DNA of 64,000 nt, taken from assembly GCF_026625145.1 (NCBI RefSeq), contig NZ_CP113088.1, positions 1,054,001-1,118,000 of the forward strand, written 5' to 3'. Every line of letters starts with the position of its first letter. Position 1 is the stretch's first letter. Source of the DNA: Lacinutrix neustonica (GTDB lineage: Bacteria > Bacteroidota > Bacteroidia > Flavobacteriales > Flavobacteriaceae). A program made the position numbers and the translations under genes. Positions 336 to 64,000 of the stretch are shown here, piece after piece. The notes under the pieces were generated by a model. It was not told the origin of the DNA. It searched no databases and saw only the letters and a list, made by a program, of their open reading frames with translations.

Positions 336-1146
336 ATGATCATAGACGTACACACCCATATTAACAATTACCATGAAGACCGCGTTGTTTCACTAGAAGA
401 TTGCCTTAATAACCTTACTGAGAATATGGCACAAAACAAGGTGAATTATTCACTGGTGTTGTCTTCTTATAAAGTTAATGAACACCGTCCCAGTACCCGC
501 CAAGTTGTAGAAGCTATTAAAGGGCGTCATAATTTAGGCGTTGTTGCTGGTGTTAGTTATTTACATTACGACCACAGAGATGTTAGAGAAATAAGTGAAT
601 ATCCGGAACAAGGTTTAATAAAGGGTTTGAAATTTTATCCTGGTTACGAACCCTTTTACCCAAACGATATTCGGTTTAAACTCATGTATGAAATGGCCAT
701 AGAGTACGACGTACCTGTCATGTTTCATTCTGGAGATACTTATGCGCCTACTGGCAAAGTAAAATACTCTCATCCGTTACACATTGACGATTTGGCAGTA
801 GATTATCCGAGACCTAAAAATAGTGATTTGCCACATTGGAAACCCTTGGATTAAAGACTGTATGGAAGTGGTGTACAAAAACAAAAATGTCTATGCTGAT
901 ATTTCGGGATTGGTTTTAGGCAATTTTTCTGAAAAATTTGAACGCTACATGAAAAAAGAAATCGAAGAAATGATTACTTATGCTGGTGATCCAAATTATC
1001 TATTATATGGCACAGATTGGCCCATTTCTAATATGGAGTCTTATTTAAAATTCATGAATCAATTAGAATTAGCAGATGAAAAAAAAGAATTAATTCTCCG
1101 GAAAAATGCGGCTGAGGTTTTTAAAATTGATGTTAAGACGCTTTAA
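336..1146 (+). CDS. Amidohydrolase family 2 metal-dependent hydrolase (frame broken at 807)
   Basis: Predicted cytoplasmic TIM-barrel hydrolase of the amidohydrolase-2 (PF04909) group, about 269 residues once the frame is restored. The N-terminal metal motif DVHTH is at residues 4-8, an internal KFYPGY strand near residue 110, MFHSGD near 130, CHIGNP after the break and the C-terminal YGTDWP aspartate motif near 226. As read the frame shifts at 807-812, where CCGAGA replaces the expected CCGGA; restoring it gives DYP-D-LKIVICHIG. The 811-nt span minus one base is divisible by three. Substrate is unknown; the family includes decarboxylases and lactonases. It stands alone upstream of a SnoaL-like remnant. 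Confidence 0.85.
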
Positions 1147-1248
1147 TGTGTATTACAATACAGCGAGCGTAAGCCATCTAAACCGTTTGTATCTGTTAGT
1201 TTTCAAAAATTTGTTAGCGTTATAGTTTAACTCATAAAATATAAAATT

Positions 1249-1591
1249 ATGGAAACCAAGGCTATAGATCAAAAACGGAAACAAAAGTGCCCTAAAGGTA
1301 AAACCTAGAGTGTATTAAAAAAATTTATGCAGAAAATGTAATAGCCTGGTGTGCCTGGAGAGATAATCACAGGCATGCAAAATGTTTGGAATAAAGGTAA
1401 GGAATGGTTAGGAAGTGTGCATTCAAGCTCTGTTTCTGAACCCCTAATAGCCGGTGATTTTTTTACTTCAAAAATGAATTTCGATTGCACTTTTAAAGAA
1501 GGAGGCAGGCAAAAAATAAAAGAAGTTGGCGTCTATAAATTTAAAGACGGCAAAAATTACCAGTGAGCAGTATTTTTATACTATGAAATAA
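1249..1591 (+). pseudogene. SnoaL/NTF2-like small protein, frame broken in several places
   Basis: The C-terminal part, read from 1351, contains VSEPLIAGDFF and VGVYKFKDGK, typical of SnoaL-like (NTF2 fold) proteins that end GKI-SEQYFY. The ending appears if one A is removed from the A5 run near 1556. Upstream, the start METKAIDQK at 1249 joins to KNLECIKKIYAENVIA if one A is added near 1305. A further break near 1345-1350 could not be assigned to a motif. It may be a functional gene hit by sequencing error or a real pseudogene. The usual family length is about 115 residues, which fits the whole span. Function unknown. Confidence 0.5.
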
Positions 1592-1623
1592 AGTTAACTG
1601 TATCTATTAATACTTTATAGCAT

Positions 1624-1657
1624 AAAAAAAGCTTCCATTAAAACGGAAGCTTTTTTT
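1624..1657. terminator. Bidirectional hairpin terminator
   Basis: Perfect stem AAAAAAAGCTTCC / GGAAGCTTTTTTT around an 8-base loop. It sits between the rightward SnoaL-like gene and the leftward murA, so it can stop transcription from both sides. Confidence 0.85.
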
Positions 1658-1681
1658 ATGCTTTACGTAAAAGACTTAAAT

Positions 1682-3001
1682 TTAGTTTCCTTCTACTCGT
1701 TCTATCTTGGCTCCTATACGTTGTAAACGTTCTACAATGTGCTGATACCCGCGATCGATTTGTTCGATATTATGGATTTTAGAGGTTCCTTTTGCTGATA
1801 ATGCAGCAATCAATAATGAAATACCGGCTCTAATATCCGGAGAGGTCATTGTGGTGGCTTTTAGTTGTGATTTAAAATCATGTCCTATAATGGTCGCCCT
1901 ATGTGGGTCGCACAAAATAATTTTTGCGCCCATATCGATCACCTTATCTACAAAGAATAATCGACTTTCAAACATTTTTTGGTGTACCAAAACTTCTCCT
2001 CCGGCTTGTGTAGCGACTACTAGGACGATACTCAGTAAATCCGGTGTAAAACCAGGCCAAGGGGCATCAGCAATCGTTAAAATAGAACCATCAATGTAGT
2101 TTTGTATTTCGTAACCCTGTTTATGCTCTCGGAATGAAAATATCATCTCCACGTCTTTCTAAAGTAATTCCCAGTTTTCTGAATACATCTCGGTATTTGT
2201 CCTAAATCGTCCCAACTCACATTTTTAATAGTGAGTTCACTCTTGGTCATTGCAGCAAGACCAATCCAACTTCCAATTTCAATCATGTCCGGAAGCATGG
2301 TGTGCTCTGTTCCACCTAAGTGGTCAACACCCTCAATGGTTAATAGATTAGAACCCACGCCAGATATTTTTGCGCCCATGCGATTCAGCATTTTACATAA
2401 CTGCTGTAAGTAGGGTTCGCAAGCGGCATTGTAAATCGTTGTTTTTCCTTCTGCCAAAACAGCAGCCATAACAATATTTGCTGTTCCAGTAACAGATGCT
2501 TCATCCAAAAGCATGTCTGCTCCTTTTAATTTTTCAGCCTCTACACCATAAAAATAATCTTCACGATTGTATCTAAATTTTGCGCCCAAATTAATAAAGC
2601 CCTCAAAATGAGTATCTAAACGACGACGTCCAATTTTATCACCTCCTGGTTTAGGGATGTACCCTTTTCCAAAACGTGCTAATAGTGGGCCAACAATCAT
2701 GATAGAGCCACGTAAACCGCGTCCTTCTTCTTTAAATAGTGCGGATTCTAAATATTTTAAATTAAGGTCGTCTGCTTGAAAAGTAAACGTTCCTTCTTTT
2801 ATTTTATCAACTTTAACTCCTAAATTCTTTAACAGAAGAATCAATTTATTGATATCTATAATATCTCGGAATATTATTGATAGTAACCTTTTCAGAGGTC
2901 AGCAATACAGCACACAAAATTTGTAATGCTTCGTTTTTAGCGCCTTGAGGCTGTATTTCACCTTTTAGCTGGTGACCGCCTTCAATAATAAATGTACCCA
3001 T
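1682..3001 (-). CDS. murA: UDP-N-acetylglucosamine 1-carboxyvinyltransferase MurA (three frame breaks)
   Basis: Catalyses the first committed step of peptidoglycan precursor synthesis: transfer of enolpyruvate from PEP to UDP-GlcNAc in the cytoplasm. The restored protein is about 438 residues, normal for MurA, with an EPSP-synthase-like repeat fold, the [12 protein letters not shown] active-site loop near residue 120, [15 protein letters not shown] and QAGGEVLVH. The usual loop cysteine is aspartate here. As read the frame breaks at 2127-2132, 2188-2193 and 2864-2869; each is TCTCGG on the plus strand in place of TCCGG, and removing one base at each makes the span exactly 439 codons. The start ATG at 3001 gives [20 protein letters not shown]. 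It lies 8 bases downstream of the DUF4290 gene, so the two are probably cotranscribed. Confidence 0.95.
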
Positions 3002-3009: not shown

Positions 3010-3671
3010 TTAATATCGTTTTTTGTTGCGATTAGACGTATTGGATTTATTTTGAGATCCTTTTTTGTTCGAGTGTGTATTGGTATATTTTTTCTTATTA
3101 CTGCTTTTTAACAAACTTGTAGAATCTGTTAACTCTTCTTCAGAGTTTTTAAGATTGAGCTCCCCATTAGACAATTCAAATAAATGATTAAAAATCACAC
3201 TGTCTTCCACGGTATCTTTGTTCCAATTTAAGAAACATTTTTTCATGTGGTTGGCAATAGTATATATCAAAGCTTCTTTCAAATCACCATCTTCCCAAGA
3301 AATGGCGACATCAATCATGGTCTTGATATTATTTCCGTAGAAGCGATACTTTGGGAAATTTTGAGGGTATTCTAAAGTTTCAGGTCTTTCTTCTAAAAGT
3401 TCTTTAGATGGCATTCCATAAGGAGAATCGGCATCCAACTCAAATTTAGACATGATAAATAACTGATCCCAAAGTTTGTGCTGAAAATCGGGCACATCAC
3501 GCAAGTGAGGTTGTAAATTTCCCATGACCGAAATAATGGCTTTAGCTACTTTACTGCGTTCTTCTTTAGTCTCTTGCTTAATAGCAAAATTTACCATTTT
3601 TTGAACGTGTCTTCCGTATTCGGAATGATTAAATGCTCACGCTCTGTATTGTATTCTATGTCGTCTATCAA
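3010..3671 (-). CDS. DUF4290 family protein
   Basis: Conserved Bacteroidota protein of unknown function, about 220 residues. The body from MVNFAIKQETKEER reads openly from 3597. The conserved start, roughly IDDIEYNTEREHLIIPEYGRHVQK, appears upstream after adding one base at 3619-3625, where TTCGGAA replaces TTCCGGAA. I placed the start at a TTG at 3671; with the added base the span is 221 codons. The C-terminal 40 residues are a basic low-complexity tail (K, N, S, T rich). It precedes murA by 8 bases in the same direction, a common arrangement in Flavobacteriia, which suggests a cell-envelope or growth link but gives no function. Confidence 0.8.
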
Positions 3672-4235: not shown

Positions 4236-4779
4236 TTGAATACAAAAACAATTGTCATAACCGGAGGTCCTGGCACAGGGAAATCATCACTAATAAATGA
4301 GTTAACAAAAAGAGGGTTTACTTGCTTTGAAGAAATTTCGCGAGAAATCATCATTAAAGCCAAAGCAGAAGGCATAGAACAGCTTTTTTTAACAGACCCC
4401 ATAAAGTTTAGTGAATTACTTTTAGACGGAAGAATTAAGCAATTCAAAGAAGCGAACGCCAGTAACAATGAATTTGTGTTTTTAGATCGTGGGATTCCGA
4501 GATGTACCTGCATATATGGATTATAAAGGCACCACTTATGCCGATTTTTTCAAGCACGCTTGTACAGAACATGTTTATGATTCCATCTTTATATTGGCGC
4601 CTTGGCAAGATATTTTTACCAGTGACAATGAACGCTATGAAAATTTCGATCAGGCTATAGAAATTCATGAAAAACTTCTAGAGACCTACACTAAGTATGG
4701 TTACAACTTAAGAGATGTTCCTTTTGGTTCTATTAAAGCTAGAACAGATTACATCATCGATGTTGTAAAAGCATTGTAA
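4236..4779 (+). CDS. AAA-type P-loop ATPase (AAA_28 family; frame broken at 4497)
   Basis: Small cytoplasmic ATPase of about 180 residues. The Walker A motif TGGPGTGKSS is at residues 8-17 and a Walker B-like FVFLDRGIPD near 80-89. After the restored junction it continues VPAYMDYKGTTYADF and YNLRDVPFGSIKARTDYI. The start is TTG at 4236. The frame shifts at 4497-4502, CCGAGA for CCGGA; the span minus one base is 181 codons. Similar proteins occur throughout Flavobacteriia and lie near recQ here; the family has distant similarity to nucleotide kinases, but the substrate is unknown. Confidence 0.8.
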
Positions 4780-6777: not shown

Positions 6778-7733
6778 TGACTAAAAAAAAGATTTACGTA
6801 TTGTTTTTATGGGCACGCCGGATTTTGCTGTCACTACGTTGCAAACACTTATAGAAAACAACTATACTATTGTTGGTGTCATTACGGCACCTGACAAGCC
6901 TGCAGGTCGTGGCCGTAAACTTAACAAAAGTGCCGTAAAGACATTTGCTGAAGCACACCAACTAAATATTTTACAGCCCACTAATCTTAAAGCTGACGAT
7001 TTTTTAAAAGAATTAAAGGCCCTTGATGCCAATTTGCAAATCGTGGTTGCATTTAGAATGTTACCAAAAGCCGTGTGGCAAATGCCTGAATACGGCACCT
7101 TTAATCTTCATGCGTCTCTTTTACCAAACTACCGTGGGGCAGCTCCAATAAATTGGGCCATAATTAATGGAGAAACAAAAACAGGAGTTTCTACATTCTT
7201 TATCGATGAAAAAATTGATACTGGCGCTATGATTCTTCAAGAAGAACAACCCATTGCAGCCAATGAGAATGCAGGAAGTCTTCACGACACCCTTATGATG
7301 CTTGGTAGCAAACTAGTATTAAAGACGGTAAAACTCATTGAAAACGGTGCGGTCGACACCATACCGCAACCGAGAGGATGCCATTAGCAAAACGGCCTAT
7401 AAGCTAAATACGGAAAATTGTAAAATTGATTGGACGGCCTCTATGGATACCATATATAACAAAATTAGAGGTCTAAGCCCATATCCAGCGGCCTGGAGCA
7501 CCCTTTATAATGGGGATGCTATATTGGATGTAAAGATTTATACCTCAGAAAAAGAAAAAATAGCGCATGATTATGAAATAGGCCAAATTATTTCAACGAA
7601 AAAAGAAACTAAAGTCGCTGTAAAGGAGGGGTTTATAAAAATTACGGAGATAAAACTCCCTGGAAAACGCAGTATGGATATAAAATCACTTTTAAATGGT
7701 TACCATTTTGAAACGGATGCAAAAATGGCGTAA
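6777..7733 (+). CDS. fmt: Methionyl-tRNA formyltransferase (two frame breaks)
   Basis: Formylates the amino group of methionyl-tRNA for initiation. The formyltransferase core has RIVFMGTPDFAV at the start, GVITAPDKPAGRGRK and FNLHASLLPNYRGAAPINWAI (motif NxHxSLLPxxRG); the C-terminal OB-like tRNA-binding domain has IRGLSPYPAAWSTL. The N-terminus needs one A added to the A8 run near 6783-6790, giving MTKKKDLRIVFMG, and the frame shifts again at 7370-7375, CCGAGA for CCGGA. The two errors cancel, leaving 319 codons. It overlaps the recQ stop codon by one base. Confidence 0.93.
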
Positions 7734-9791: not shown

Positions 9792-10179
9792 TTATGCAGA
9801 ACCCAATACTTGTTTTAAATCTGAAATTTGATTTTCCCACAGCATTTTTGCTTCATCCACTTCACCTTCTTCAGCAAAATCGGTTATCATGATAGACACG
9901 TCTTTAGTAATTTCGTCAACCTGTATTCTTATTTCAAAATAATAGGGATCCTCTTCATCTACTAACCATTTAAATTTAATGCGCTCACCACTCTTTTTAG
10001 TAATAAGTTTTGCTGACTCTTCTGATCCATCCCAAATGAATTTAAAAAGCTCTCCTCGCGAATTTACATTGTCTGCAAACCATTCAGATAAACCGAGACG
10101 GTGTCGAGATATATTGATATAGCAATTGCGGAGAAGCGTGAATAGGAAATTCTAGTTCGTATTTTAATTTTTCGTCCAT
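9792..10179 (-). CDS. START-like / SRPBCC domain protein (frame broken at 10093)
   Basis: About 128 residues after restoration. The N-terminus reads MDEKLKYELEFPIHASPQLL, then YQYISTPSGLSEWFADNV, FKFIWDGSEESAKLI and FKWLVDEEDPYYFEIRI, the pattern of the Bacteroidota START-like/SRPBCC domain, a helix-grip fold with a hydrophobic pocket; the ligand is unknown. As read a stop follows TPSRFI because CCGAGA (plus strand 10093-10098) replaces CCGGA; the span minus one base is 129 codons. It lies upstream of the aminotransferase gene in the same direction, separated by the hairpin at 9737-9764. Confidence 0.8.
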
Positions 10180-37002: not shown

Positions 37003-37477
37003 ATGACAATCAAACTTATTGCCATTGGCAAAACCGATAACAAACAGTTACAAGCGCTAATAGACGAGTATACAAAACGTTTAGGGTTTTATATCAAGTT
37101 TCAATTGGAAATTATTCCGAGACATTAAAAATGCTAAAAACTTAAGCGAAACGCAACAAAAGCAAAAGGAAGGTGAGCTCATTTTAGCCAAACGCTCCAA
37201 TACCGACGTTTTAATACTATTGGATGAAAACGGAAAACAACACGATTCTGTTGGCTTTTCCAACTACTTGCAAAAGCATATGAATTACGGAGTAAAACAA
37301 TTGGTTTTTGTTATTGGTGGCCCCTATGGCTTCTCACAAGAAGTCTACGAAAAAGCCCATGGTAAAATTTCTTTGTCTAAAATGACGTTCTCCCACCAAA
37401 TGGTGCGTTTATTTATTATTGAACAACTCTATCGTGGCTTTACCATTTTGAGGAATGAACCTTATCATCATAGGTGA
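37003..37477 (+). CDS. rlmH: 23S rRNA (pseudouridine-1915-N3) methyltransferase RlmH (frame broken at 37117)
   Basis: SPOUT-fold methyltransferase acting on 70S ribosomes. About 157 residues, normal length. MTIKLIAIGKTDNKQLQALI at the start; the SAM-binding knot FVIGGPYGFSQEVYEKA and SLSKMTFSHQMVRLFIIEQLYR; end FTILRNEPYHHR. The frame breaks at 37117-37122 (CCGAGA for CCGGA), restored EIIPDIKNAKNLSETQ; corrected length 158 codons. The 3' 210 bases are duplicated, diverged, at 38911-39119. This copy has the full 5' part and a normal end, so it is taken as the functional gene. Confidence 0.93.
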
Positions 37478-41560: not shown

Positions 41561-43521
41561 CTATGGATTTAATATTTCATTCTCAATGGCGTCCACCAAA
41601 TCTCGAGGTGCATGACCCCGCTGATTGGATAGCACAGCAATGACTAAATCATCATCTCTATACACCCTTAAATGAGAAAGCGCCCCTATGTTACTGCCGC
41701 CATGCTCTGCCACCCTGCGACCATTTCGCGTTCTTATATCCCAGGCGATGCCATTGGTGGTATTCACATTCACAGGGTTCCATAACCGATTATCTCGTGT
41801 TGCTGCATTAATAATTTCGCCCGTTAAGTGCTTATATCCAAAACGCACCAGATCTACGGCATTACACTCTATACCTCCCCCTAACACCTTCCAGCTATTA
41901 TTAGCGTGAACCGCTAAAAGTCCAGTGTCAAAATAAGGTGTTGCCCGTTCATAATCAGCCTCTAAAAAAGCATTCTTAAACATAACCTTCATACTACTCA
42001 AACCGTACTGGTCTGCAATTTCTTCTTCTACCAATTGTGAGATTGGTCGATTGGTAACCGATTCTAACACCGCTCCAATAAAGGTAAAGGCATGGGTTGA
42101 ATAATTCCTTGAGCTTCCCATGGTGCAATTAGCGAGCGTAGGCGCATTCCATAGTTGCTGTGTTGCTGCTAAAGCAGTATTAAAATGAACGCCTATAGGC
42201 TCGGGCCCTGTGGAGTAATGCCACATACAACCCGTATGTGAAAATAATTGTTCAACGGTATGGGTGTGGCTATTCTCTCGGAATCGCTAAAAAATTAGTG
42301 GTGGGTTGCGTTAAGTCTAAGGACACCGCCGTCCCATCTTTCAATTGTCCTTCGGCTTCTAGTTTGGCCGCTAAAGTACCTCCAATCACTTTTGAAATAG
42401 AAGCGATAAGGTATACCGATTTGCCATGAGCCTTTTTGTTGGCCAACTTATCTGCTTCACCAAAACCTCTTTGATACACAACATTCCCGCCTTGAAGCAC
42501 GGCAACTGAAACACCTGCTATAGCATTATCGACTTGATATTGGTTGACTATTGCATTAATAGCCTCTTGCTTACTGTAGCGTGATCTAATGGTGTTATTC
42601 TCGGTCCACACCCCAGCATAGCGCTTGCCACTTGGCGTACTATAGCTCTCGAAGTCAATTAAACGGTAGCCCATATCATTATATAACCGCCAATAATTGG
42701 CATATTCGGTTTCTGTTCTATCTGTGCGAACCGCTGTTTTATGATTATAGGTGTTTTTTTCCCGAGATAGCCGCATATTTTTGTGTATTACCAACAGTAT
42801 ATGATTCAAAATCTATGACTTTGTAGCCACGATTACCAAAATCATCAATTTTTTCTTGATATTCTGTGCGCGTCATGCCTCTATATTCGGCCCATTCTAA
42901 ATTTGTAGGGTTCTCATACCATATCGCTGAAAACTTAAGATTTCCGAAATGTAATAAGCTTCTATATCTACCAAACGAAATCCCGCTGCTGATTTTTCTT
43001 CAAATAAATCACCAAATGCTGTTGATGATAAATCACGATGCGATGACCAACCGATACCTTCTTTATTTTCTTCCCAAATACCAGCATATCTCGGTATTGG
43101 AACCCTTTTGGTAACATTCTATATCTGTAGGCCGCCATCCCATGTTTTTATATTCTACCCATTTTTCATGATACCCCTCTGAGGTTAAGTCTCGCCACTC
43201 TGCCCAACCACGAGCATCAGTATTTTCTTCCCAAATCATGGCATACTTTGTTTCTAAACCGCTGGTATAGGCATCCACATCCTTAATAATCCATCCTTTG
43301 TCTTTATATTCTTGAAAATAAGCAGAAAACTGCTCACTCGTCAAATCACGTCGTGAACCCCATTGAAGTCCTGGTGGCGCAGTGGTTTCTTGAATGTCCT
43401 TTATAATTCCTTTTAAACTATTACAAGAAAAGACGCCACCTATAAATGCACATAAAAGAATCGTTTTTAATATCGAGAATCGTTTTATTTTAAACCTTTG
43501 TAAAGCTGTAATCGTGTTCAT
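41561..43521 (-). CDS. BTRD1-repeat serine beta-lactamase-like hydrolase (polyglycine-hydrolase-like; four frame breaks)
   Basis: About 652 residues. A lipoprotein-like signal with GGVFSC near 30-36, then five tandem repeats of about 50 residues at about 45-330 with the core YAxIWEEN (YAMIWEEN, YAGIWEEN, FSAIWYEN, YAAIWEKN, YAGVWTEN), the bacterial tandem repeat BTRD1 propeller. A serine hydrolase domain of the beta-lactamase/PBP class C type follows: SISKVIGG (SxxK) near 376, RNYST for the Tyr motif and AEHGGSNIGA for the HGG motif. Lesions: 43089 and 42762 (CCAGA as CCGAGA), 42944 (CCGGAA as CCGAA), 42276 (CCGGA as CCGAGA). Net +2, corrected 653 codons. Fungal polyglycine hydrolases share this architecture. 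Confidence 0.85.
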
Positions 43522-44639: not shown

Positions 44640-46510
44640 ATGAGCACATTCCAAGATTTAGGTCTTAATGAAGATCTATTAAAAGGTATTACAGATTTAG
44701 GTTTCGAAACACCATCTGAAGTACAAGAAAAAGCAATCCCAATTTTATTAAACGAAGACACAGATTTAGTGGCTTTAGCGCAAACTGGAACCGGTAAAAC
44801 AGCCGCTTTTGGTTTCCCAATGTTACAAAAAATTGACATTGACAGTCGTACGACTCAAGGTCTTATTTTATCACCTACTCGTGAACTATGTTTACAAATT
44901 GCTAATGAAATGAAAGCTTACGGTAAATACTGTAAAGGCTTAAATGTAGTAGCAATATATGGTGGTTCTAGCATTACCGATCAAGCACGTGAGGTAAAAC
45001 GTGGGGCACAAATTATTGTGGCAACTCCTGGTCGTATGAAAGATATGATTAGCCGCAGATTGGTTGATATTACAAAAATTCAATATTCGGTTTTAGATGA
45101 AGCCGATGAGATGTTGAACATGGGCTTCAAGGAAGATATTACAGAAATTCTTTCCGGTACTCCCGAAGATAAAAATACATGGTTATTTTCTGCAACGATG
45201 CCTAAAGAAGTGGCAACCATTGCAAGAAAATTCATGAAAAGTCCGCAAGAAATTACGGTTGGTCATAAAAACGAGAGTACAGATAATGTTTCTCACGAAT
45301 ACTATTTAGTGAATGCTCGTGATCGCTACCAAGCGTTAAAGCGTTTAGCAGATGCGAATCCGAGATATCTTTTCGGTGATTTTTTGTCGTACCAAACGCG
45401 ATACACAAAAGGTTGCAGAAAACTTAATTGAAGATGGTTACAGTGCTGGAGCACTACACGGGGATTTGTCACAAAATCAACGTGATATCGTGATGAAGCA
45501 ATTTAGAAGCCGCCAAATACAAATGTTGGTTGCTACAGATGTTGCTGCTCGTGGTATTGATGTAGACGATATAACACACGTGATAAACTATCAATTAAGT
45601 GATGAAATAGAAACGTATACACACCGTTACGCAGAACAGGTCGTGCGGGTAAAACCGGGGTCTCTATGGTTATTGTTTCTAAAAGTGAAGTGCGTCGTTT
45701 AAAGAGCATTGAACGTATTATTAACAAGAAATTTGAGCTAAAAGAAATACCAAACGGTATGGAGATTTGCGAAGTACAGTTACTCTCATTAGCCAATAAG
45801 ATACATAATACAGAAATCAATCACGAAATTGATAAGTATTTAGAAGATATTAATACTTTGTTTGAAGACACTTCAAAAGATGAATTAATCAAGAAATTCT
45901 TCTCTGTAGAATTCACACGTTTCTTTAACTATTACCAAAAATCTAAAAACTTAAACGTTGCTGCCGGAGATTCGGTAGAGATAGCGGAAGAGATTCCGGT
46001 AGAGAATCTAGCGGAAGCGCTGCACGTTACTTTATCAACGTTGGTGAGAAAGATGGTTTCGACTGGATGAAATTAAAAGATTTCTTAAAAGAAGAATTGC
46101 AATTGGGTCGTGATGATGTCTTTAAAGTAGATTGTAAGGACACCTTCTCTTTCTTTAATACTGAAAAGGAACACCAAGAGAAAATACTGGCTTTCTTTAC
46201 AGACTATAAACACAACGGACGTTTTGTTAATGTAGAAATCACAGAAGACAAACCAAGTCGTGGTGGTCGAGGTCGTGGTGCAAGCGGTGGCGGAAGACGT
46301 AGAGATGGTGGTGGAGATAGAAACCGTGGTGACAGAAGATCAGCTGGTGGCGATAGACGACCAAGCGGAAGACGCAGTGAAGGCTCTAGCGACAAACGCC
46401 GTGGTGGTGATGACAGTCCTAAACCAAGATCAAGAAGAAGTGATGGTGGTGACAGAGACAAATCTGAATTTAAAACCACACACGCAACACCTAGACGTTC
46501 TAGAAGATAA
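44640..46510 (+). CDS. DEAD-box RNA helicase with RGG-rich tail (three frame breaks)
   Basis: ATP-dependent RNA helicase, about 623 residues, CsdA/DbpA-like. Q motif FETPSEVQEKAIP, Walker A AQTGTGKT, PTRELCLQIA, DEAD box VLDEADEML and SATMP; helicase C with RTKRDTQKVAENL, VATDVAARGIDV and the arginine finger HRSGRTGRAGKTG. A DbpA-like RNA-binding domain and a Gly/Arg/Asp-rich tail (about 520-623) follow. Lesions: 45360-45365 (CCGAGA for CCGGA); 45625-45634, where TTACGCAG stands for TTCCGGAAG and destroys the conserved RSGRTGR motif; and 46009-46016 (GCGGAAG for TCCGGAAG). Net -1, corrected 624 codons. Confidence 0.93.
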
Positions 46511-48161: not shown

Positions 48162-48832
48162 ATGAAACATCTTGTTGTATTAACTGGCGCTGGAATGAGT
48201 GCCGAAAGTGGTTTAAAAACGTTTCGAGACGCTAATGGTTTATGGGAAGGCCATGAGGTGATGGCCGTGGCGTCACCGAAGGTTTTGCGGCCAATCCTGA
48301 ATTGGTTTTCGATTTTTATAATCAAAGACGCCAACAGCTATTAGAAGTAGAACCTAACAAAGCTCATATGGCGTTAGCAGATCTTGAAAACCATTTTAAA
48401 GTGACCATCATTACCCAAAATGTAGACGATTTACATGAGCGCGCTGGTAGTTCTAATGTCATTCATTTACATGGTGAATTATTAAAAGTACGCAGCATCC
48501 AAAACGACAAGGTACTGTTAGATTGGAAAAAAGACCTTAACTTAGGAGATTTAGATACCAATGGCCATCAATTACGCCCACACATCGTTTGGTTTGGTGA
48601 AGCCGTACCTTTAATAGATAAGGCGGTAGAGATTTGCCAAACGGCAGACCGATTACTTATCATTGGTACGTCGCTGCAAGTATATCCTGCAGCGAGTTTA
48701 ATGCATTATGTCCCGGACCATACACCCATGTATTTTATAGATCCCAATCCTTCTATTTCAAGCACAAAAAATCTAACCGTCATTGCTAAAACAGCAACAG
48801 AAGGTATTAATGAATTTATCTCCATTTTTTAA
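48162..48832 (+). CDS. cobB: Sir2-family NAD-dependent protein deacylase (frame broken at 48276)
   Basis: Removes acyl groups from lysines using NAD. About 223 residues, class III sirtuin. [17 protein letters not shown] at 6-22, [12 protein letters not shown] near 90, HLHGEL and [12 protein letters not shown]. The zinc-binding cysteine pairs seen in many sirtuins are absent: between HLHGEL and HIVWFGE there are none, as in several Bacteroidota CobB proteins. The frame breaks at 48276-48280 (CCGAA for CCGGAA), restored [17 protein letters not shown]; corrected 224 codons. The TAA overlaps the next ATG. Confidence 0.93.
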
Positions 48833-49764: not shown

Positions 49765-51402
49765 TTATTTCATTAAATCTATAGCTTTTAAACTATCGAT
49801 ACGGTTTCGTTCTAAAAAGGCATCAATGGTTTCAAAATGTTCAATAACGCGTTGGTCTTTAAACTCAAAGACTTTTTCTGAAAGCCCTTGTAAAAAATCA
49901 CGATCGTGAGAGACTAAAATTAAGGTACCATCAAAATCTAGTAGGGCTTCCTTAAGCACATCTTTAGATTTTAAATCCAAGTGATTGGTGGGCTCATCGA
50001 GAATCAACAAATTTACGGGCTCTAACAATAATTTCACCATCGCCAATCTGGTTTTTTTCTCCACCGAGACAACACCCCTACTTTTTTATCAATATCATCG
50101 CCTTTAAACATAAAACGGCCAAGAATATTTTTGATACCTGTTCTCACATCACCTTTTGCCACCTCATCAACGGTTTGAAATACCGTTAACTCATTATCTA
50201 ATAAAGCCGCTTGGTTTTGTGCAAAATAGCCCACTTGCACATTATGACCTAAACTACATTTTCCTTCAAAATCAATGTCTCCTAAAATAGATTTGATCAT
50301 AGTAGACTTCCCTTCTCCATTTCGTCCTACAAAACTCACCTTCTCCCCTCTTTTTATAGATAGGTTAGCATCCTTAAACACGACATGTTCATCGTATGTC
50401 TTGGTTAAATTCTCCACAGTCACAGGAAAATCTCCGAACGCTGTGCAGACGGGAAACGCAGTTTTAAAGCGGAAGTATCAACTTCATCGACTTCAATAAT
50501 TTCTAACTTTTCAAGCATACGTTCACGTGAGGTTACTTGGTTGGTTTTAGAATACGTCCCTTTAAAACGTTCAATGAATGTCATATTATCGGCAATAAAC
50601 TTTTGCTGTTCTTGATAGGCTTTAATTTGATGGATTCTTCGGTCCTCACGTAATTGTAGGTAATGGGAGTAGTTGGCTTTATAATCATAAATGCGCCCCA
50701 TAGTTACCTCAATGGTGCGATTAGTAATGTTATCAATAAAAGCACGATCATGAGAAATTACCATCACGGCATTGGCTTTATTTACTAAAAAGTCTTCTAA
50801 CCAAATCACCGATTCAATATCAATATGGTTTGTAGGCTCATCGAGTAAAATTAAATCGGTTTTTGTAATAGAATTTTTGCTAATTCTATCCGCATGCGCC
50901 AACCGCCACTAAATTCACTAGTCAGTCGTGTGAAATCCTCGGGTTTAAATCCTAACCCCTTAAGAGCCTTCTCCACTTCTGCTTCATAGTTAATATCGTC
51001 TAGAGCATAATAGCGATCCCCTAACTCTGAGACCTTTTCAATAATAGACATGTAGGCGTCACTCTCATAATCTGTTCGCGTTTCTAATTGTTTATTAAGC
51101 TGCGCCATCTCGTCTCTCATCTCGAAAACAGAGGCAAAGGCTTTAGACGCTTCTTCAACAACGGTACTATTATCTTGAGTTAATAAATGCTGTGGTAAAT
51201 AAGCAATCACCGTATCTTTAGGCCCATTCACTTTGCCTCGTGTCGCTTTTTGCTCGCCAGCAATAATTTTCATCATGGTCGATTTTCCAGCACCATTCTT
51301 ACCCATTAACGCAATCTTATCATTTTCATTAATCACGAAATTAACGTCTTTAAATAAGGTGGTGCCGCTAAATTCTACCGCTATATTATCTACTGTAATC
51401 AT
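49765..51402 (-). CDS. ABC-F family ATP-binding protein (three motif breaks and one homopolymer break)
   Basis: Soluble tandem ABC ATPase of about 545 residues, of the group that binds the ribosomal E site (EttA/Uup/YdiF type). First cassette Walker A GKNGAGKST, signature SGGWRMRIELAK, Walker B LILLDEPTNH; second cassette GRNGEGKST, signature restored as SGGEKTRLAM and LLILDEPTNH. A linker with YSKTNQVTSRERMLEKLE lies between. Lesions on the plus strand: 50064-50069 (CCGAGA for CCGGA) plus an extra T in the T7 run at about 50051; 50434-50438 (CCGAA for CCGGAA); 50854-50859 (AATCGG for AATCCGG). Net zero, 546 codons. Confidence 0.94.
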
Positions 51403-52687: not shown

Positions 52688-53135
52688 ATGAAGCGTATTA
52701 ACGAGTACAAAAAACTATTTAATGTAGAGCAAGACATGACTTTAAAAAGCTTAAAGACGTCTTACCGTAATTTAGTTAAAGAATGGCATCCGAGATAAGT
52801 TTCAGGAAGGTGACGAGAAAGCGCATGAAGCCGAGTTAATGAGTCGTAAAGTGATTGATGGTTACCACTTTTTAGTAAGTATGGCACCGTAAACGATTGC
52901 TGCCAATAAAGAAGAATATGATACCACTATTAACAGTGCCATATTAGATTGGAAACATAAAGGCTTATTATTAGAGGTTACCTTTTTAGATGGTAATACT
53001 TATGAATATTTTGGAGTGAACAAAGCCTTATACATTAAGTTTTCACAAAGTGACAAACAAACCCGTTTTGGAAAACGTAGTATTTTCAATTCATTTCCAT
53101 ATAGAAAAATTAAGAAGCAAGAAGTTACTGCTTAA
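52688..53135 (+). CDS. DnaJ-domain protein fused to KTSC domain (two lesions)
   Basis: About 148 residues. A J-domain with YKKLFNVEQDMTLKSLKTSY and the HPD motif (WHPDKFQE, restored), followed by a C-terminal KTSC domain with GLLLEVTFLDGNTYEYFGV near 95-115. Lesions: 52790-52795 (CCGAGA for CCGGA, exactly across the HPD codons) and 52887-52892, where ACCGTAA makes a stop in place of ACCGGAA; restored MAPETIAANKEEYD. Corrected length 149 codons. HPD suggests stimulation of an Hsp70; the partner is unknown. Confidence 0.82.
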
Positions 53136-53212: not shown

Positions 53213-54455
53213 CTAGTCTTGTTTCTTATTCTTCTCCTCTATCCACTTACTCATAAACTTCGTGCTTTGCATGGTATGATGCATTAACATGCTCCCTGTA
53301 AAATTACTTTTCCTATGGGCAGCTATCCCTTTTTGAAGCAATTCTAATCGTTGTAAGAAATCGGCAACAAAGAGCTGCTTATCGAAACGGAGATTAATCA
53401 CTTGGATGCCATGCTTTTGTTTTCCTGTCCGAGAAAATTTTATTGGTGTACAATTCTATAGCCATATTGGCAAATACCATAGGATCATCTTCAATAAATC
53501 CGTTAGGCTCTAAAGCACCATACATCCCTTCTGCACCAATGCTTGTGGTTACACAAGGGATACCGTTTAACATCGCATCCACCAATTTCCCCTTTAACCC
53601 TGCACCATACCGTAAAGGCACCAAGCAAACTTTATGTTCTTGCATAACCGCATTGATGTCTTCAACAAAGCCCTTAATAAAAAAACCTTGACTTTTATCA
53701 TTCAATTGGCTCAATTTAGAAGATTCATAAGCGCCGTACACATGCATTTCGGCTTTGGGGAGTTTCTTTCTAATGGCTGGCCAAATAGAGGTCTTTAGAT
53801 ATTTAACGCCATCAACATTGGGGGCATGTAAAAAATTACCCACGGTAATAAAATGTTCCCGTTGTTTAAATCCTGGTAATGCTTTGTGCTCTTTTAAAGA
53901 TATGGCATTAAGTAAAAAAGGCAGATAGCATAATAAATGTTCATTAACATGAAACTGATGTTTTAAAATATCAATTTCTACTTCCGAAATGATAAGACTC
54001 AAGTCGCATCTATAGATACTCGCAATTTCACGTTTAGCCACATCATTGTAGAGGTAATTCGTATCAAAAACCGATTGATCATCTAACGCTTGTTTTCGAC
54101 CTTTTCTTAAACAATGTAGGTCTTCTGTATCCAATAAACGCAGGGCATCAGGACAGTGTTGCGCCACACGCCACCCAAATTGCTCTTCAATCATAAAGCG
54201 ATCGAAAAGCACCACATCGGGACAGATGCTTTTTAAAAACACGTCAAAACTAGGGGCATTTAATTGTATGGTTTCAATCGTAACCCCTATACTTTTTAAA
54301 TCGAAGGCGTTGTCACTTTTTGCACAAGCGGTTGCAAAAATAATGTCGTAATTTTTAGATTGAAACAGTGCTATTAGGTGCATCATTCGGCTTCCTGCAG
54401 CCGAGCTTTTAGGCTCGGGCGAGACAAAACCGATAATTAAAAGTTTTTTATTCAA
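53213..54455 (-). CDS. Glycosyltransferase, GT4-like (frame broken at 53429)
   Basis: About 413 residues, cytoplasmic face. N-terminal Rossmann domain IIGFVSPEPKSSAAGSRMMH with GSRMMHL, middle ITVGNFLHAPNVDGVKYL near 210, C-terminal HKVCLVPLRYGAGLKGKLVDAML and PCVTTSIGAEG, the donor-binding pattern of GT4/GT-B enzymes. The frame breaks at 53429-53434 (CCGAGA for CCAGA), restored NKIFWTGKQKHGIQVINLRF; corrected 414 codons. Sugar donor unknown; no other polysaccharide genes nearby. Confidence 0.85.
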
Positions 54456-54510: not shown

Positions 54511-54983
54511 TTATTCCGGCCTTGGCGTTAAAGCATAACCTAATCTTACTTTATTGCCCCAATCTACAACTTGCTGGATTTGAACATCTGTTAAATTGGC
54601 ATCACTGTGTGTGTAGGTATAACTTGGCAAAGGCATCTCTTTTTCTTCAACTTCCTCTATAAGTTCTTCAAACTTATGATCCTTTTTCTTAATAGAATAA
54701 TTATCCCATAACGATACATTAAAATGTTTTTTACCATCATTAACATGTTCAGCCAACCAGTAATTTATTGGAGTAATCTTATTATACCAAGGATATGTCG
54801 TGTGATTACTGTGGCAATCAAAACATGTTTCTGTTAAAATTGCCTTTACGTCATCCGATGGTTTTGTTTCTGCTAAAAAAGCATTAACCGATTCCATCGA
54901 ACCGTCATTTTTTTCGGGCCAAAAAATTGAGCGATGAGAACAACCACCAGCAGCACCAAAAGAATTTTTTTTGCAATTTTCAT
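54511..54983 (-). CDS. Haem-binding domain protein with N-terminal anchor (frame broken near 54911)
   Basis: About 157 residues. ATG at 54983 begins MKIAKKIL, a hydrophobic anchor LVLLVVVLIAQFF; the mature part has the c-type haem motif CFDCHSNHTTYPWYNKITP near 55 and the YALTPRPE end of the haem-binding (DUF-type) family. The as-read anchor frame needs one T removed from a T5 run near 54956-54960 and two bases restored at 54908-54916 (CCGAAAAAA for CCGGAAAAAAA). Together these restore 158 codons. Probably periplasmic; electron-transfer role inferred. Confidence 0.8.
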
Positions 54984-55808: not shown

Positions 55809-57153
55809 ATGTCATTAACACACTTAAATGCCATCTCACCTATTGATGGTCGTTATAGAAATAAAGTAGAAAAATTAACCCATTATTTTTCTGAAGAAGC
55901 ACTTATTAAGTACCGTGTTTTAGTAGAAATCGAATATTTTATTGCACTCTGCGAGCAGCCTTTACCACAATTACAAGGGGTAAACCCTTCTGTCTTTGAA
56001 GCGCTTCGTAAGATTTATAAAGACTTTAGTACGGCAGATGCACAAGCCATTAAAGACATCGAAAAAGTGACCAACCACGATGTAAAGGCGGTGGAATATT
56101 TTATAAAAGAACAGTTTGATAAACTAGACCTTAATGATTATAAAGAGTTTATTCACTTTGGATTAACCTCTCAAGATATTAACAATACAGCCATTCCTTT
56201 AAGCATTAAAGAAGCCATGAACGATGTTTATGTTCCTGGCTATTTTGAAGTTCTACAAAAATTGAAAGCATTAGCTGAAGAATGGAAAGACATCCCAATG
56301 CTAGCAAGAACGCATGGGCAACCAGCATCACCAACACGTTTAGGTAAAGAAATCCAAGTATTTGTAGTCCGTTTAGAAGAGCAGTTTAACTTGTTAAACG
56401 ACATACCGAGTGCTGCAAAATTTGGTGGTGCAACAGGAAATTTTAATGCCCATAAAGTCGCTTACCCTAAGATAGACTGGAGGGCTTTTGGAAGCACATT
56501 TGTTCAGGAAAAATTAGGTTTGCAACACTCCTTCCCCACGACACAAATTGAGCATTACGACCATTTGGCGGCCTTATTTGATTGCATGAAACGTATCAAT
56601 ACCATACTCATCGATTTAGATCGCGACATCTCGGACGTATGTGTCTATGGATTATTTTAAACAAAAAATAAAAGCGGGTGAAGTAGGTAGCTCTGCCATG
56701 CCTCATAAAGTAAACCCTATAGATTTTGAAAATTCCGAAGGTAATTTAGGGATGGCTAATGCTATTTTTGAACATTTATCGGCAAAGCTTCCCATCTCGC
56801 GTTTACAGCGCGATTTAACAGACAGTACGGTGTTGCGAAATGTAGGTGTCCCGTTTGGTCACACCTTAATCGGATTTCAATCCACTTTAAAAGGCTTAAG
56901 TAAATTATTACTAAACGAACCAAAGTTTGCTCAGGATTTAGAAAATAATTGGGCGGTTGTGGCCGAAGCCATCCGGACGATTTTACGTCGGGAAGCCTAT
57001 CCCAATCCTTATGAAGCATTAAAAGGATTAACCCGAACGAACGAAGCGATTACCAAAACATCCATTTCAAATTTTATTGATACTTTAGAAGTCAGTGAGG
57101 CTATCAAAACGGAATTGAAAGCCATTTCGCCAAGTAACTATACCGGTATATAA
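55809..57153 (+). CDS. purB: Adenylosuccinate lyase (frame broken at 56629)
   Basis: Two steps of purine synthesis: cleavage of SAICAR and adenylosuccinate, releasing fumarate. About 447 residues. AISPIDGRYRNKV at the start, FGLTSQDINNTAIPLS, MLARTHGQPASPT and the signature SSAMPHKVNPIDFENSEGNL. The frame breaks at 56629-56634 (TCTCGG; plus strand); restoring TCTGG gives the conserved Trp in DRDIWTYVSMDYFKQKI, so the true site is CCAGA on the minus strand. Corrected 448 codons. Essential in minimal medium, so the break is unlikely to be real. Confidence 0.96.
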
Positions 57154-59233: not shown

Positions 59234-59728
59234 AATTGTGTGTTTTAGTTAATTGTTCTCTTATTGTTTTTCTAGCTCTTGATAGCGTCACTCTTACTGC
59301 TGTTTCTGTCATGTCTAGCATTTTCGCGATCTCGCTAAAGTCGTACTGTTCAATATCTCTTAATTGTATTACTAACTTTTGCTGTTCGGCAAACCTTTCA
59401 TTATTCTGCCAACCCAGTGAAGACTATCGTTTACTTCTAACTGTTTTTGAAGCGCAACGCTGTGATCTTCGTAATTACTGTGTACAATTTTTAAATTTTG
59501 TGCCTGCTTCGATTTCAACTTATCATAACAAAAATTCTTTGTCATGGTCATAGAAAATGCTTCAACGTTTTTATAGTCTTTAATTTTCTTTTTATTATTC
59601 CAAAGCTTAATTAATATTTCTTGTGTGGCATCTTCTGCTTCTTCAGTAGACACTAACAATCTTTTTGCTAGCCGAAATACCTTATCCTTAAAAGGCAATA
59701 CTATATTTAAAAATTCTATTTGTGTCAT
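59220..59728 (-). CDS. ECF-type RNA polymerase sigma factor (frame broken at 59385)
   Basis: About 169 residues. Region 2 with DKVFRLAKRLLVSTEEAEDATQEILIKLW; region 4 with RDIEQYDFSEIAKMLDMTE and VRVTLSRARKTIREQL. As read it stops in GLPNSKS; TTCGGC at 59385-59390 (plus) stands for TTCCGGC, and restoration gives MKGLPEQQKLVIQLRDIEQY. Corrected length 170 codons. Without restoration the protein would lack the -35-binding region. Confidence 0.93.
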
Positions 59729-61275: not shown

Positions 61276-61972
61276 GACCTATTTTAACTGGAGCTACGGC
61301 AAAGATTCTGCTTTAGCACTTTATTATTTACTACAAGATCCTAATTATACTATAGGCAAGTTAGTCACTTCTGTTAATACCCATTACAATCGTGTATCCA
61401 TGCATGGATTGCCCTTAGATTTATTAAAAGCGCAAACCAATGCCATTGGTATTCCATTACAAACCATTGATTTGCCGGAGCAACCCACTATGGAGGACTA
61501 CGAGAGGATAATGACCAAAGTGGTGAATAGTTTAAAAACGGAGGGTTTTTCACACGCTGTTTTTGGTGATATATTTTTGGAAGATTTAAAACGTTATCGT
61601 GAAGACAATCTATCTAAATTCAAAATAAAGACCTTGTTTCCGCTTTGGAAAAAAGACACGAACCACTTAATCAATGAATTTATAGACTTAGGCTTTAAAG
61701 CGGTGATTGTTTGTGCCAATGCCAAATATTTTTCTGAAGATTTTGTTGGGCAAACCATCACCAAAGAGCTCATTGAAAATTTACCAAAGGAAGTCGATGT
61801 CTGTGGCGAAAATGGCGAGTTTCACACGTTTTGTTATGATGGTCCCATTTTCAAAACCCCCATTCCCTTTTCTATCGGAGAAAAAGTATATCGAGAATAC
61901 AATGCCCCTAAAACGGAAGACTCCGTTTGTAATTCAGCAAAACGGGCTTTTGGTTTTGTGATTTGGTATTAA
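61266..61972 (+). CDS. PP-loop ATPase, ATP_bind_4 / diphthine-ammonia-ligase-like
   Basis: About 235 residues. The PP-loop motif SYGKDSALALYYL is at about 9-21; further HAVFGDIFLEDLKRYRED and CGENGEFHTFCYDGPIF, characteristic of PF01902 (Dph6/MJ0570 family). A TTG start at 61266 is chosen (MNNKTYFNWSYGKDS), overlapping the S41 stop by 10 bases; no ATG lies near the motif. In bacteria the substrate is unclear; some Bacteroidota members belong to cobalamin-related gene sets, which would suit the neighbouring TonB/propeller pair. That link is inference. Confidence 0.82.
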
Positions 61973-62004
61973 AATAAAAGCCTCTTTAAAAGAGGCTTTT
62001 ATTT
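61973..62004. terminator. Bidirectional terminator
   Basis: AATAAAAGCCTCTTT / AAGAGGCTTTTATTT near-perfect palindrome between the convergent PP-loop ATPase and propeller genes. Confidence 0.88.
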
Positions 62005-62024
62005 ATGTTAAAGAAAATGTTTTT

Positions 62025-63053
62025 TTAATTGAAATACACTTCCCCTGGAATGACACCTACAGTAATAACTTCCATTTCTGTATTAGTAGTTAAATCGAAT
62101 ACTTTTAAGGTCCCATTAGTTGAAAAATCTCCAGCATCAAGTCCATATAACAAACCATTTCTGACAGACATATCATAAAAACTAACATCTGTGAACTCAG
62201 GTATTGTCGGAAAATCTGTTGCTGTTTCATCCATTTTATATACTGAACCTCCTGCATATAAATACAGATTCCCACTATCAAAATTCAACTTAGAAGGAGA
62301 TGAAATTGAACTATCAAATGTTACTGTTTTATTGATAATATTGGAATTAGTATTGATCTCTATTAAATTTTCCGAAGACAAAACCCACAAATCATTGTTT
62401 GAATCCAGTTGTAAAGAATTTGGCGAATTCCCAACAGTTATACTATCTACTAATTCATCAGTTGCTGAATTAAATACATCTACCTTATTTCCATTACCAT
62501 ATATTCCTGTTGCTACATAGACCTTATTATTTACAGCAATAATTTCCTCTGGTAAGTAACTTGTAGCTATTGTATCAAGTATTGTGTTTGTACCTAAATC
62601 TACTACCAATAGAGCATCATCTGTTGTATCTGAATAATCTCCCCAAGCAGTAACATAACCTTTCCCATTGGAAATGGTCATATATCTTGGATTAATAACT
62701 CCTGTATTTATAGTCGCAATAGATTCAAAAGTATATCTATTCACTACTTCTATCTGATTTGATACATTTATTATTATATAAGCAAAATCTCCATTGAAAG
62801 CCATGCTTTGTGCCACAGTACCTAAACTTCTGCTATTTACATTAGAAAAAATATCATGTTCTATTGTTGTAAAATCATTTGATACGTATGAGACTGTTCC
62901 TACTCCTCCGGAAAAACTTCCTTCATGAGAAATTAAAATACCATTTTCATAAGCACCTAATGGCACAACTGCTGTTGAATCATCATCATTACTACAAGAG
63001 GTAAACGTTACAGCAATTACTAATGCTATTAAAGCTAAGTTGTTTAGTTTCAT
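62025..63053 (-). CDS. YncE/DUF5074-type beta-propeller surface lipoprotein
   Basis: 342 residues, intact. Lipoprotein signal MKLNNLALIALVIAVTFTSCSNDDDS, then repeated blades of the type VVDLGTNTILDTI, VFNSATDELVDSITVGNSP and VFDLTTNTEMEVITVG, a seven-bladed propeller pattern. The SxxDDD residues after the lipid cysteine fit a surface-export signal of Bacteroidota lipoproteins. In Bacteroides BtuG, a propeller of this kind, captures cobalamin for BtuB; the adjacent TonB receptor in the same direction makes a similar ligand-capture role plausible but unproven. Confidence 0.88.
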   Translation of the reverse strand: MKLNNLALIALVIAVTFTSCSNDDDSTAVVPLGAYENGILISHEGSFSGGVGTVSYVSNDFTTIEHDIFSNVNSRSLGTVAQSMAFNGDFAYIIINVSNQIEVVNRYTFESIATINTGVINPRYMTISNGKGYVTAWGDYSDTTDDALLVVDLGTNTILDTIATSYLPEEIIAVNNKVYVATGIYGNGNKVDVFNSATDELVDSITVGNSPNSLQLDSNNDLWVLSSENLIEINTNSNIINKTVTFDSSISSPSKLNFDSGNLYLYAGGSVYKMDETATDFPTIPEFTDVSFYDMSVRNGLLYGLDAGDFSTNGTLKVFDLTTNTEMEVITVGVIPGEVYFN

Positions 63054-63059
63054 TTTTTT

Positions 63060-64000
63060 TTAAAATTTAATGGTTGTTTGTATTTGAAAATTTCTATTGG
63101 GCATTGGTCGCAATGCTACGTTTTCGTAATATTTATTATAAATATTATTTACTTTAAAATCTAAATGGTAGTTCACTTTTCCTTTCATATTTAAAACATA
63201 ACTTAATCCTATATTCCCAATATCGTAGACCTCTAATTCATCTCTAGAAATTGTAAAAACCTCTCCAACGAATACATGCTGATAATACATAGAAAAAGCC
63301 TTATGGCTATAAGCAAAAGATAAATTACCTTTATGAAAAGGCACATAAATAAGTTGTTTACCAGTCATCTTATTTTCTGAAACTGTATAAGAATAGTTTC
63401 CCTTAAGTTCTAAATGCTGCTTATTAAACTGCTTTTGTAAGCTTAACTCTGCTTCTACGCCATAATTTTCGGTTTCAGCAATATTTACTGGGCTCCATAG
63501 ACCGAAACAGCATTTGGTCGCCACTGGATTAAGTCTTCCGTTGAAATATAGTAGGCATTCATCTTAAAATTTAAAAAACTAAATTGTAATTCTTGCCCAA
63601 AATCTATCTGATAGGAAGATTCCGGAACCAAATTCGGATTCCCGCCAGGTTGCCAAAACAAATCATTAAACGTGGGCACTCTGTAGTTCTTTGAAGCATT
63701 TAGTTTTAATATATAGGTTTTAGCTAATTCGAATTTTGAGTCTATGGAAAACACCATCGGACTATCGAATTGACTGGTAAAATCTTTTCTAATATTTAAG
63801 CCATAGCTTAGTTTTTTAGTCAGTTTATGACTTAATAGTCCCGATAGAGAAAAGACCTCTCTTTTAGGATCTCCAAAACTACCACCTTCACCAGTAATGG
63901 TATTATACTCAACAACAGATTGCACTTTTATTTGTTCAGATAATTGAAAATTTAAATCATGTTTTAGAATTAATGTATTTACTTTTCCGAAGGAAAAATT
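63060..64000 (-). CDS. TonB-dependent outer-membrane receptor, C-terminal part (partial; frame broken at 63495)
   Basis: The gene runs off the right edge; about 313 residues of the barrel are present. Strands such as YILKLNASKNYRVPTFNDL, FWQPGGNPNLVPESSYQID and the terminal NRNFQIQTTIKF are typical of BtuB/CirA-like receptors, including the conserved RxPTFxxLF-W block. The frame breaks at 63495-63501, CCATAGA for CCAGA (+2); restored, WRPNAVSVWSPVNIAETENYG. Six bases separate it from the propeller gene downstream. The substrate cannot be told from this part. Confidence 0.9.

What the first reader, a model, noticed from the sequence alone, without database searches (positions are those of the whole stretch)
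807..63501. Window-wide frame breaks at one 5-mer, CCRGA: footprint of an unknown DNA modification
I count 47 lesion sites. As-read forms are CCGAGA (+1) or CCGA (-1), with a few CCGTA, CCATAGA, CCAGTA or other variants, where frame and protein family require CCGGA or CCAGA. Examples of +1: 807, 4497, 7370, 37117, 45360, 50064, 52790, 2127, 2188, 2864, 30468, 36708. Examples of -1: 3619, 15485, 18818, 24798, 29136, 31705, 41033, 48276, 50434, 59385. In every affected gene where I did the arithmetic, correcting only these sites plus a few homopolymers gives a codon-multiple length. Hits include rpsR, murA, hisS, priA, purB and nadC, so the breaks cannot be real in a living cell. Many CCGGA sites are intact (605, 1097, 2294, 5753, 6821, 16752, 22572, 56973, 61473), so the error is partial. 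The best explanation is a modified CCRGA/TCYGG motif misread in long-read data.
Basis: partly seen in the sequence, partly recalled or inferred. Interest (0 to 1): 0.9.

Follow-up and report, generated by a model that had tools for sequence, protein, structure and literature searches.

The report
Methylated CCAGA misread across a genome
The genes in this stretch look broken because one five-letter DNA word, CCAGA, which is very probably methylated in this bacterium, seems to have been misread in sequencing; the finding is mainly a warning about a faulty public genome, not new biology.

Summary
The frame breaks are real features of the file, very probably not of the organism. The window lies in a 3.9 Mb single-contig genome, Flavobacteriaceae by its RecQ. 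Against relative G004 (83% DNA identity over recQ) one 5-mer stands out: CCAGA is about sixfold depleted, CCGGA 4.5-fold and CCGAGA threefold enriched. At 360 G004 CCAGA sites this genome keeps 37 and reads CCGGA 73, CCGAGA 34, CCGA 25, CCGTA 14. The motif is CCAGA, not CCRGA; only 5 of 225 aligned CCGGA are CCGGA in G004. The misread fraction is similar whatever the codon, and both 16S copies carry it, a form found in 1 of 395 genomes of the order, this one. About 84% of CCAGA sites are affected if G004's density applies. In the window, 33 frame changes hit 25 of 45 testable genes; 28 lie at CCGAGA/CCGA. Methylation-induced nanopore consensus error, a known phenomenon, is the best explanation; the platform was not seen. 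Candidate writers: a C5 methyltransferase beside an HNH nuclease (slightly favoured) or a Type IIG enzyme. Which one is unresolved.

The parts
807..812 (+). CCGAGA, +1 break in an amidohydrolase-family gene
   Evidence: gap vs G004, frame change, PF04909
2127..2132 (-). CCGAGA, +1 break in a murA-like gene (PF00275)
2188..2193 (-). CCGAGA, +1 break, same gene
2864..2869 (-). CCGAGA, +1 break, same gene; G004 has CCAGA
3619..3624 (-). CCGA, 1-nt gap; G004 has CCAGA
4497..4502 (+). CCGAGA, 1-nt insertion; G004 has CCAGA
6818..6822 (+).
7370..7375 (+). CCGAGA, +1 break in a formyltransferase gene (PF00551)
10093..10098 (+).
28676..28681 (-). CCGAGA, +1 break; G004 has CCAGA
29136..29139 (-). CCGA, -1 break; G004 has CCAGA
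30468..30473 (-). CCGAGA, +1 break; G004 has CCAGA
31705..31708 (+). CCGA, -1 break; G004 has CCCGA
34807..34812 (+). CCGAGA, +1 break
36169..36172 (+). CCGA, -1 break in a nadC-like gene (PF01729); G004 has CCAGA
36708..36713 (-). CCGAGA, +1 break, same gene; G004 has CCAGA
37117..37122 (+). CCGAGA, +1 break; G004 has CCTGA
42276..42281 (-). CCGAGA, +1 break
45360..45365 (+). CCGAGA, +1 break in a helicase gene (PF00271); G004 has CCTGA
45972..45975 (-). CCGA, -1 break, same G004 protein; G004 has CCAGA
48276..48279 (+). CCGA, -1 break at a Sir2-family gene; G004 has CCAGA
50064..50069 (+). CCGAGA, +1 break; G004 has CCAGA
50434..50437 (+). CCGA, -1 break; G004 has CCTGA
52790..52795 (+). CCGAGA, +1 break; G004 has CCAGA
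53429..53434 (+). CCGAGA, +1 break; G004 has CCAGA
54914..54917 (-). CCGA, -1 break; G004 has CCAGA
56629..56634 (-). CCGAGA, +1 break
59386..59389 (-). CCGA at a frame change in a sigma-70-like gene; the nucleotide alignment puts the nearest gap at 59399 instead
63502..63505 (+). CCGA, -1 break in a TonB-dependent receptor gene; G004 has CCAGA

Best explanation
The organism's DNA reads CCAGA at these places and its genes are intact. CCAGA is methylated nearly throughout the genome by a restriction-modification methyltransferase, and native DNA was sequenced on a nanopore without enough correction, so the consensus is wrong at about 84% of CCAGA sites. The modified word comes out as CCGGA most often (silent or missense) and as CCGAGA or CCGA less often; the last two break frames. 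SHOWN: the word affected, the outcomes, the effect in every sampled stretch, rough independence from codon, presence in both rRNA operons. INFERRED: that methylation and nanopore reading are the cause; that the three outcomes arise because calls disagree about the third base (G chosen, both G and A kept, neither kept); and the writer. For the writer I slightly prefer the C5 methyltransferase beside an HNH nuclease at G000:C1:2,244,100-2,246,706 (5mC), about 45%; the Type IIG enzyme at 850,025-853,069 (6mA) about 40%; something else 15%. These three split this explanation among themselves; they do not compete with it.
For: CCAGA 143 in 424 kb here against 534 in 260 kb of G004; CCGGA 544 against 73; CCGAGA 189 against 38. 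At 360 G004 CCAGA sites: 37 kept, 73 CCGGA, 34 CCGAGA, 25 CCGA, 14 CCGTA, rest other forms. With well-conserved flanks CCAGA and its complement have the highest 1-nt indel rate of 1016 5-mers (18.7%, median 0). TCTGG to TCCGG 73 against 1 in reverse, the strongest asymmetry (z 8.4); the next that does not overlap it is z 4.4. Misread/(misread+kept): Pro 0.77, Ser 0.81, Leu 0.71, Trp 0.85 (11 of 13), Arg 0.83, Gln 3 of 3. Both 16S copies read CCGGA before CTCCTACGGG, and a 23S site that is CCAGA in E. coli reads CCGGA in both copies; the 16S form occurs in 1 of 395 genomes. All 18 sampled 20-kb stretches are affected; seven short same-genus loci are not. Keeping depends mainly on the bases at -1, +1 and -2 (0 to 47% kept), as a pore's reading window could give; no position within 20 bases is near-fixed. 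Completeness 84.46 here, 99-100 in 10 of 12 same-genus genomes. Literature (passages or sections): Dcm motifs CCAGG/CCTGG made about 70% of consensus errors with then-current ONT basecallers in one K. pneumoniae benchmark; strain-specific ONT errors at GCTGG/CCAGC and GCAGC in Listeria; a 5mC methyltransferase for CCAGA in N. meningitidis.
Against: No reads, platform record or raw signal. Homopolymer lengths resemble the relative's (G/C runs of four are 383 against 276 in similar lengths), so there is no independent nanopore mark. In the Listeria study errors were mismatches and indels were not the source; here indels are common. The substitution form alone is rarer at some missense codons (2 of 22 Trp and 0 of 15 Gln against 37 of 114 Pro); traces much of this to neighbouring divergence (12 of 28 Trp sites read CCAAA) and to indel forms, but the Trp, Leu, Arg and Gln numbers are small. 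No methyltransferase is tied to CCAGA here: the plasmid stretches with the nearest C5 homologues show no CCAGA anomaly, and in 11 Type IIG homologues residues 660-920 match at only 26-74 of 260. Authentic CCGGA may be slightly affected (2 of 24 with a 1-nt indel). For one search I did not count how many of the 395 genomes hold a readable 16S at that place.
Confidence: 0.92

Rival explanations
1. A choice within the best explanation: the writer is the 1014-aa Type IIG restriction-methyltransferase (G000:C1:850025-853069), making 6mA on the CCAGA strand only; the bottom strand TCTGG has no adenine.
For: Unbroken frame, PADLOC Type IIG E=0, Pfam Eco57I and TaqI_C domains. In G004 the Eco57I family finds three hits, in frames of 555, 292 and 249 aa, none of Type IIG length. 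Recalled: such enzymes recognise short asymmetric words and often methylate one strand.
Against: 6mA-linked errors in one R10.4.1 study are described as A in place of G before 6mA (passage), the opposite direction. A loss near 84% seems high if one strand reads cleanly (inference). Homologues' presumed target regions are too different to transfer a specificity.
Confidence: 0.4
2. A choice within the best explanation: the writer is another enzyme, such as the small N6 methyltransferase in a conjugative-element-like cluster (3107537-3108220), the Type I system near 50 kb, or a non-methyl modification.
For: These genes are present; PF01555 is found in G000 and in 0 of G004, G010, G011.
Against: A Type I system needs a two-part site and no near-fixed second half shows within 20 bases. 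No DndC-like gene was found (the control rings in 5 of 14 genomes but none over the cut-off, so this is weak).
Confidence: 0.15
3. The changes are real in the DNA (hypermutation, or frameshifts tolerated by recoding at CCAGA).
For: The strings are in the assembly; the substitution form alone is rarer at Trp and Gln codons, as selection would make it.
Against: Counted with the indel forms, loss is similar at silent and missense sites and occurs in rRNA; 25 of 45 testable window genes change frame, including murA-like, formyltransferase and nadC-like genes.
Confidence: 0.03
4. Ordinary lineage difference: G000 simply avoids CCAGA and prefers CCGGA, with unrelated assembly noise.
For: G000 and G004 differ at about 17% of bases over recQ.
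Against: The change is strongly one-directional at one word, includes 1-nt indels and rRNA; seven other same-genus loci look like G004.
Confidence: 0.02

Closest known systems
Methylation-induced nanopore consensus errors (Dcm CCWGG; Listeria GCTGG/GCAGC; Klebsiella RACG/CGTY)
   Same: Errors tied to a short motif, strain-specific, surviving consensus (passages and sections)
   Different: Here the word is CCAGA, 18.7% of conserved-flank sites carry a 1-nt indel, and most sites are wrong
N. meningitidis NEIS0771, 5mC methyltransferase for CCAGA
   Same: Same target word; methylation supported by MspJI cleavage (passages)
   Different: Homology of the G000 C5 enzyme to NEIS0771 was not tested; I reached no Neisseria sequence of it
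Type IIG restriction-methyltransferases (PADLOC REase_MTase_IIG)
   Same: Domain make-up of the G000 enzyme
   Different: Its target is unknown; solved-structure matches cover only part of it

Membership tests
Methylation-induced nanopore misread | Errors concentrated at one short sequence motif | tested here: met
Methylation-induced nanopore misread | Errors independent of coding effect and present in rRNA | tested here: met
   small numbers for missense codons, and the substitution form alone is rarer there
Methylation-induced nanopore misread | Genome encodes a methyltransferase that modifies the motif | tested here: inconclusive
   several methyltransferases present, specificity unknown
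Methylation-induced nanopore misread | Data are nanopore; errors vanish in amplified or short-read data | not testable with these tools
   no reads or platform record
Type IIG restriction-methyltransferase | Nuclease, N6 methyltransferase and specificity domains in one chain | tested here: met
   PADLOC IIG; Eco57I, MmeI_N, TaqI_C; nuclease residues judged by eye only
Type IIG restriction-methyltransferase | Modifies CCAGA | not testable with these tools
   homologue target regions diverge
C5 cytosine methyltransferase R-M system | PF00145 domain plus adjacent nuclease | tested here: met
   PF00145 E=4.7e-85 with PF13391 HNH neighbour
C5 cytosine methyltransferase R-M system | Modifies CCAGA | not testable with these tools
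   (Neisseriaceae as centre) not accepted; plasmid stretches with C5 homologues show no anomaly

The most novel reading that the evidence does not exclude
CCAGA carries a mark that base-callers handle unusually badly, perhaps not plain 5mC or 6mA, written by one of this genome's uncharacterised R-M enzymes; and the writer's target can be read directly from errors frozen in a public assembly, so other methylomes could be mined from deposited genomes in the same way.
Probability: 0.08. Interest if true: 0.55.

Novelty: new member of a known kind. Interest (0 to 1): 0.3.

Why it matters
If G004's CCAGA density applies, about 84% of some 8,000 CCAGA sites in this public genome are wrong, which breaks genes, probably lowers its listed completeness and puts a likely false base in its 16S. 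It shows that a modified motif can be found from an assembly alone by comparison with a relative, and that substitution misreads, invisible to frame checks, outnumber either kind of frame break. It also gives two uncharacterised enzymes a definite candidate target to test.

Tried and rejected
CCRGA as the motif: rejected, CCGGA is mostly a product. A second misread motif: none comparable; TTGACA enrichment looked like ordinary divergence. Homopolymer errors as main cause: spectra broadly alike. Bipartite Type I site: no near-fixed position within 20 bases, with only weak signals at -7 and -12. Phosphorothioation: no DndC hit (weak control). CCAGA anomaly on plasmids with C5 homologues: none in 50 of 156 kb, 50 of 54 kb and a whole 17.7-kb record. 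Dcm-misread E. coli assemblies as a 5mC yardstick: 5,375 genomes match the 23S query, 60 rows were listed; identity alone picked out no candidate and I read no sequence, so how 5mC at CCAGG is misread was not compared. Papers: CCAGA + methylation motif + nanopore gave 0; CCAGA + REBASE gave two Neisseria papers; TCTGG + REBASE 0; other searches are. Papers seen only as passages: PMC11610573, PMC7973814, PMC7046676, PMC6591954, PMC6984161, PMC12016153; PMC10687267 as passages and two sections; no paper was read whole.
Full report
WHERE IT IS. The window is G000:C1:1054001-1118000 of a 3,905,328-base, single-contig genome. The best named matches to its RecQ protein are Lacinutrix sp. (71% identity) and Bizionia argentinensis (68%), so it is a Flavobacteriaceae bacterium; a marine habitat is my inference. 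The nearest held relative, G004, is 83% identical over that gene. The genome's listed completeness is 84.46; 10 of 12 same-genus genomes are at 99-100, the others at 89 and 78. A ribosomal protein gene outside the window (Ribosomal_S9) is also split into two matches; I did not look at what splits it.

The listed strings are present. Using proteins of the syntenic G004 region, 45 window genes could be tested; 25 change frame, at 33 places, 28 of which hold CCGAGA or CCGA against 18% in random segments, and 17 hold CCGAGA against 3.9%. Two of the 28 are weak (32934, 50857). The nucleotide alignment, covering 42,994 window bases, shows single-base gaps at 17 of the 22 quoted examples; at 9 of these 17 G004 has CCAGA, at the rest another form, CCTGA being the commonest. 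One more example is seen at protein level; four have no alignment. Gene families hit include a murA-like EPSP-synthase-family gene, a formyltransferase, a nadC-like gene and a helicase. rpsR, hisS and purB were not tested by me.

THE MOTIF IS CCAGA. In 424 kb of this genome CCAGA occurs 143 times on both strands; in 260 kb of G004, 534 times. CCGGA is 544 against 73, CCGAGA 189 against 38. At aligned sites, G004 CCAGA is kept in 37 of 360 and read CCGGA in 73, CCGAGA in 34, CCGA in 25, CCGTA in 14; I take most of the rest for ordinary divergence. Only 5 of 225 CCGGA of this genome are CCGGA in G004; 73 are CCAGA. In the other direction, 5 of 45 G004 CCGGA are kept, low but like other CpG-containing words. 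With well-conserved flanks CCAGA has the highest single-base indel rate of 1016 5-mers (18.7%; median 0), and TCTGG to TCCGG is the most one-sided substitution, 73 against 1. CCAGC, CCAGG, CCAAA and TCAGA are kept at 39-58%. All 18 sampled 20-kb stretches show the effect; seven short same-genus loci do not.

IT IS VERY PROBABLY NOT IN THE CELL'S DNA. The share of misread among misread-plus-kept sites is 0.71 to 1.00 whatever the residue (Pro 61 of 79, Ser 47 of 58, Leu 5 of 7, Trp 11 of 13, Arg 10 of 12, Gln 3 of 3). Against this, the substitution form alone is rarer at Trp (2 of 22) and Gln (0 of 15) than at Pro (37 of 114); traces much of that to sites no longer TCTGG/CCAGA in this lineage and to indel forms, but the numbers are small. 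Both 16S copies read ACACGGACCGGACTCCTACGGG, and both 23S copies read CCGGA where E. coli has CCAGA. The 16S form, or its +1 form, occurs in 1 of 395 genomes of the order, this one; I did not count how many have that stretch readable. Parts of the rRNA genes are masked in the held copy. A 23S TCCGG that E. coli shares is unchanged in both copies, and a 16S CCGGA that I recall as normal is unchanged in the one readable copy.

HOW THE ERROR ARISES (inferred). CCGGA, CCGAGA and CCGA are what a consensus gives when calls disagree on the third base: G chosen, both kept, or neither. Whether a site is kept depends mainly on the bases at -1, +1 and -2, from 0 of 47 (GCCAGAA) to 47% (ACCAGAT). That fits a pore's reading window better than an enzyme's preference. 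From the counts, about 84% of an estimated 8,000 sites are misread if G004's density applies. Nanopore as platform is inferred: motif-bound methylation errors are described for it (passages and sections), and I know of no other common platform that would do this.

WHO WRITES THE MARK. Methyltransferases found: a Type IIG enzyme of 1014 aa; a Type I system; a C5 methyltransferase with N-terminal HTH beside an HNH nuclease; and a small N6 enzyme in a conjugative-element-like cluster. PF02086 gave none. The list is only as complete as the five families searched. For the C5 enzyme: Dcm's word CCAGG shares CCAG with CCAGA and is a classic nanopore trouble spot, and a 5mC enzyme for CCAGA is reported in N. 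meningitidis. That HTH-fused C5 enzymes often recognise words beginning CC is recalled, not tested. It is matched over its full length in none of the 12 other genus genomes, and its nearest plasmid relatives (56-57% identity over residues 119-487) sit beside LlaJI-type nucleases in three of three records opened. For the Type IIG enzyme: asymmetric words are its usual target (recalled), but 6mA errors in one study run the other way. I put 45%, 40% and 15% on C5, Type IIG and other. Differences from G004 are weak evidence, because how G004 was sequenced is unknown.

VERDICT. A known kind of artefact with a word that my searches did not find in print as a nanopore misread, and an unusual share of indels; ordinary as biology, useful as a warning and as a route from assembly errors to a methylation motif.

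Noticed in passing
G000:C1:3098001-3118000 (L126, L127): A cluster with a small N6 methyltransferase (PF01555); neighbouring open frames look like conjugation proteins, a TIR-like protein and a HipA-like kinase by eye only.
   Followed up: partly
G000:C1:1467627-1468164 and 3644505-3645019: Both 16S copies carry a likely false base next to the conserved CTCCTACGGG word; parts of the rRNA genes are masked in the held copy.
   Followed up: yes
L150:2100-4706 (-): C5 methyltransferase beside an HNH nuclease here, while its three nearest plasmid relatives sit beside LlaJI-type nucleases: a possible exchange of partners.
   Followed up: partly
G000 against G004, sampled stretches: TTGACA is about twofold more frequent in G000; aligned sites suggest ordinary divergence, not a misread.
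   Followed up: partly
window 10527-10600: The only Rfam match in the window at gathering score, a tRNA gene.
   Followed up: no
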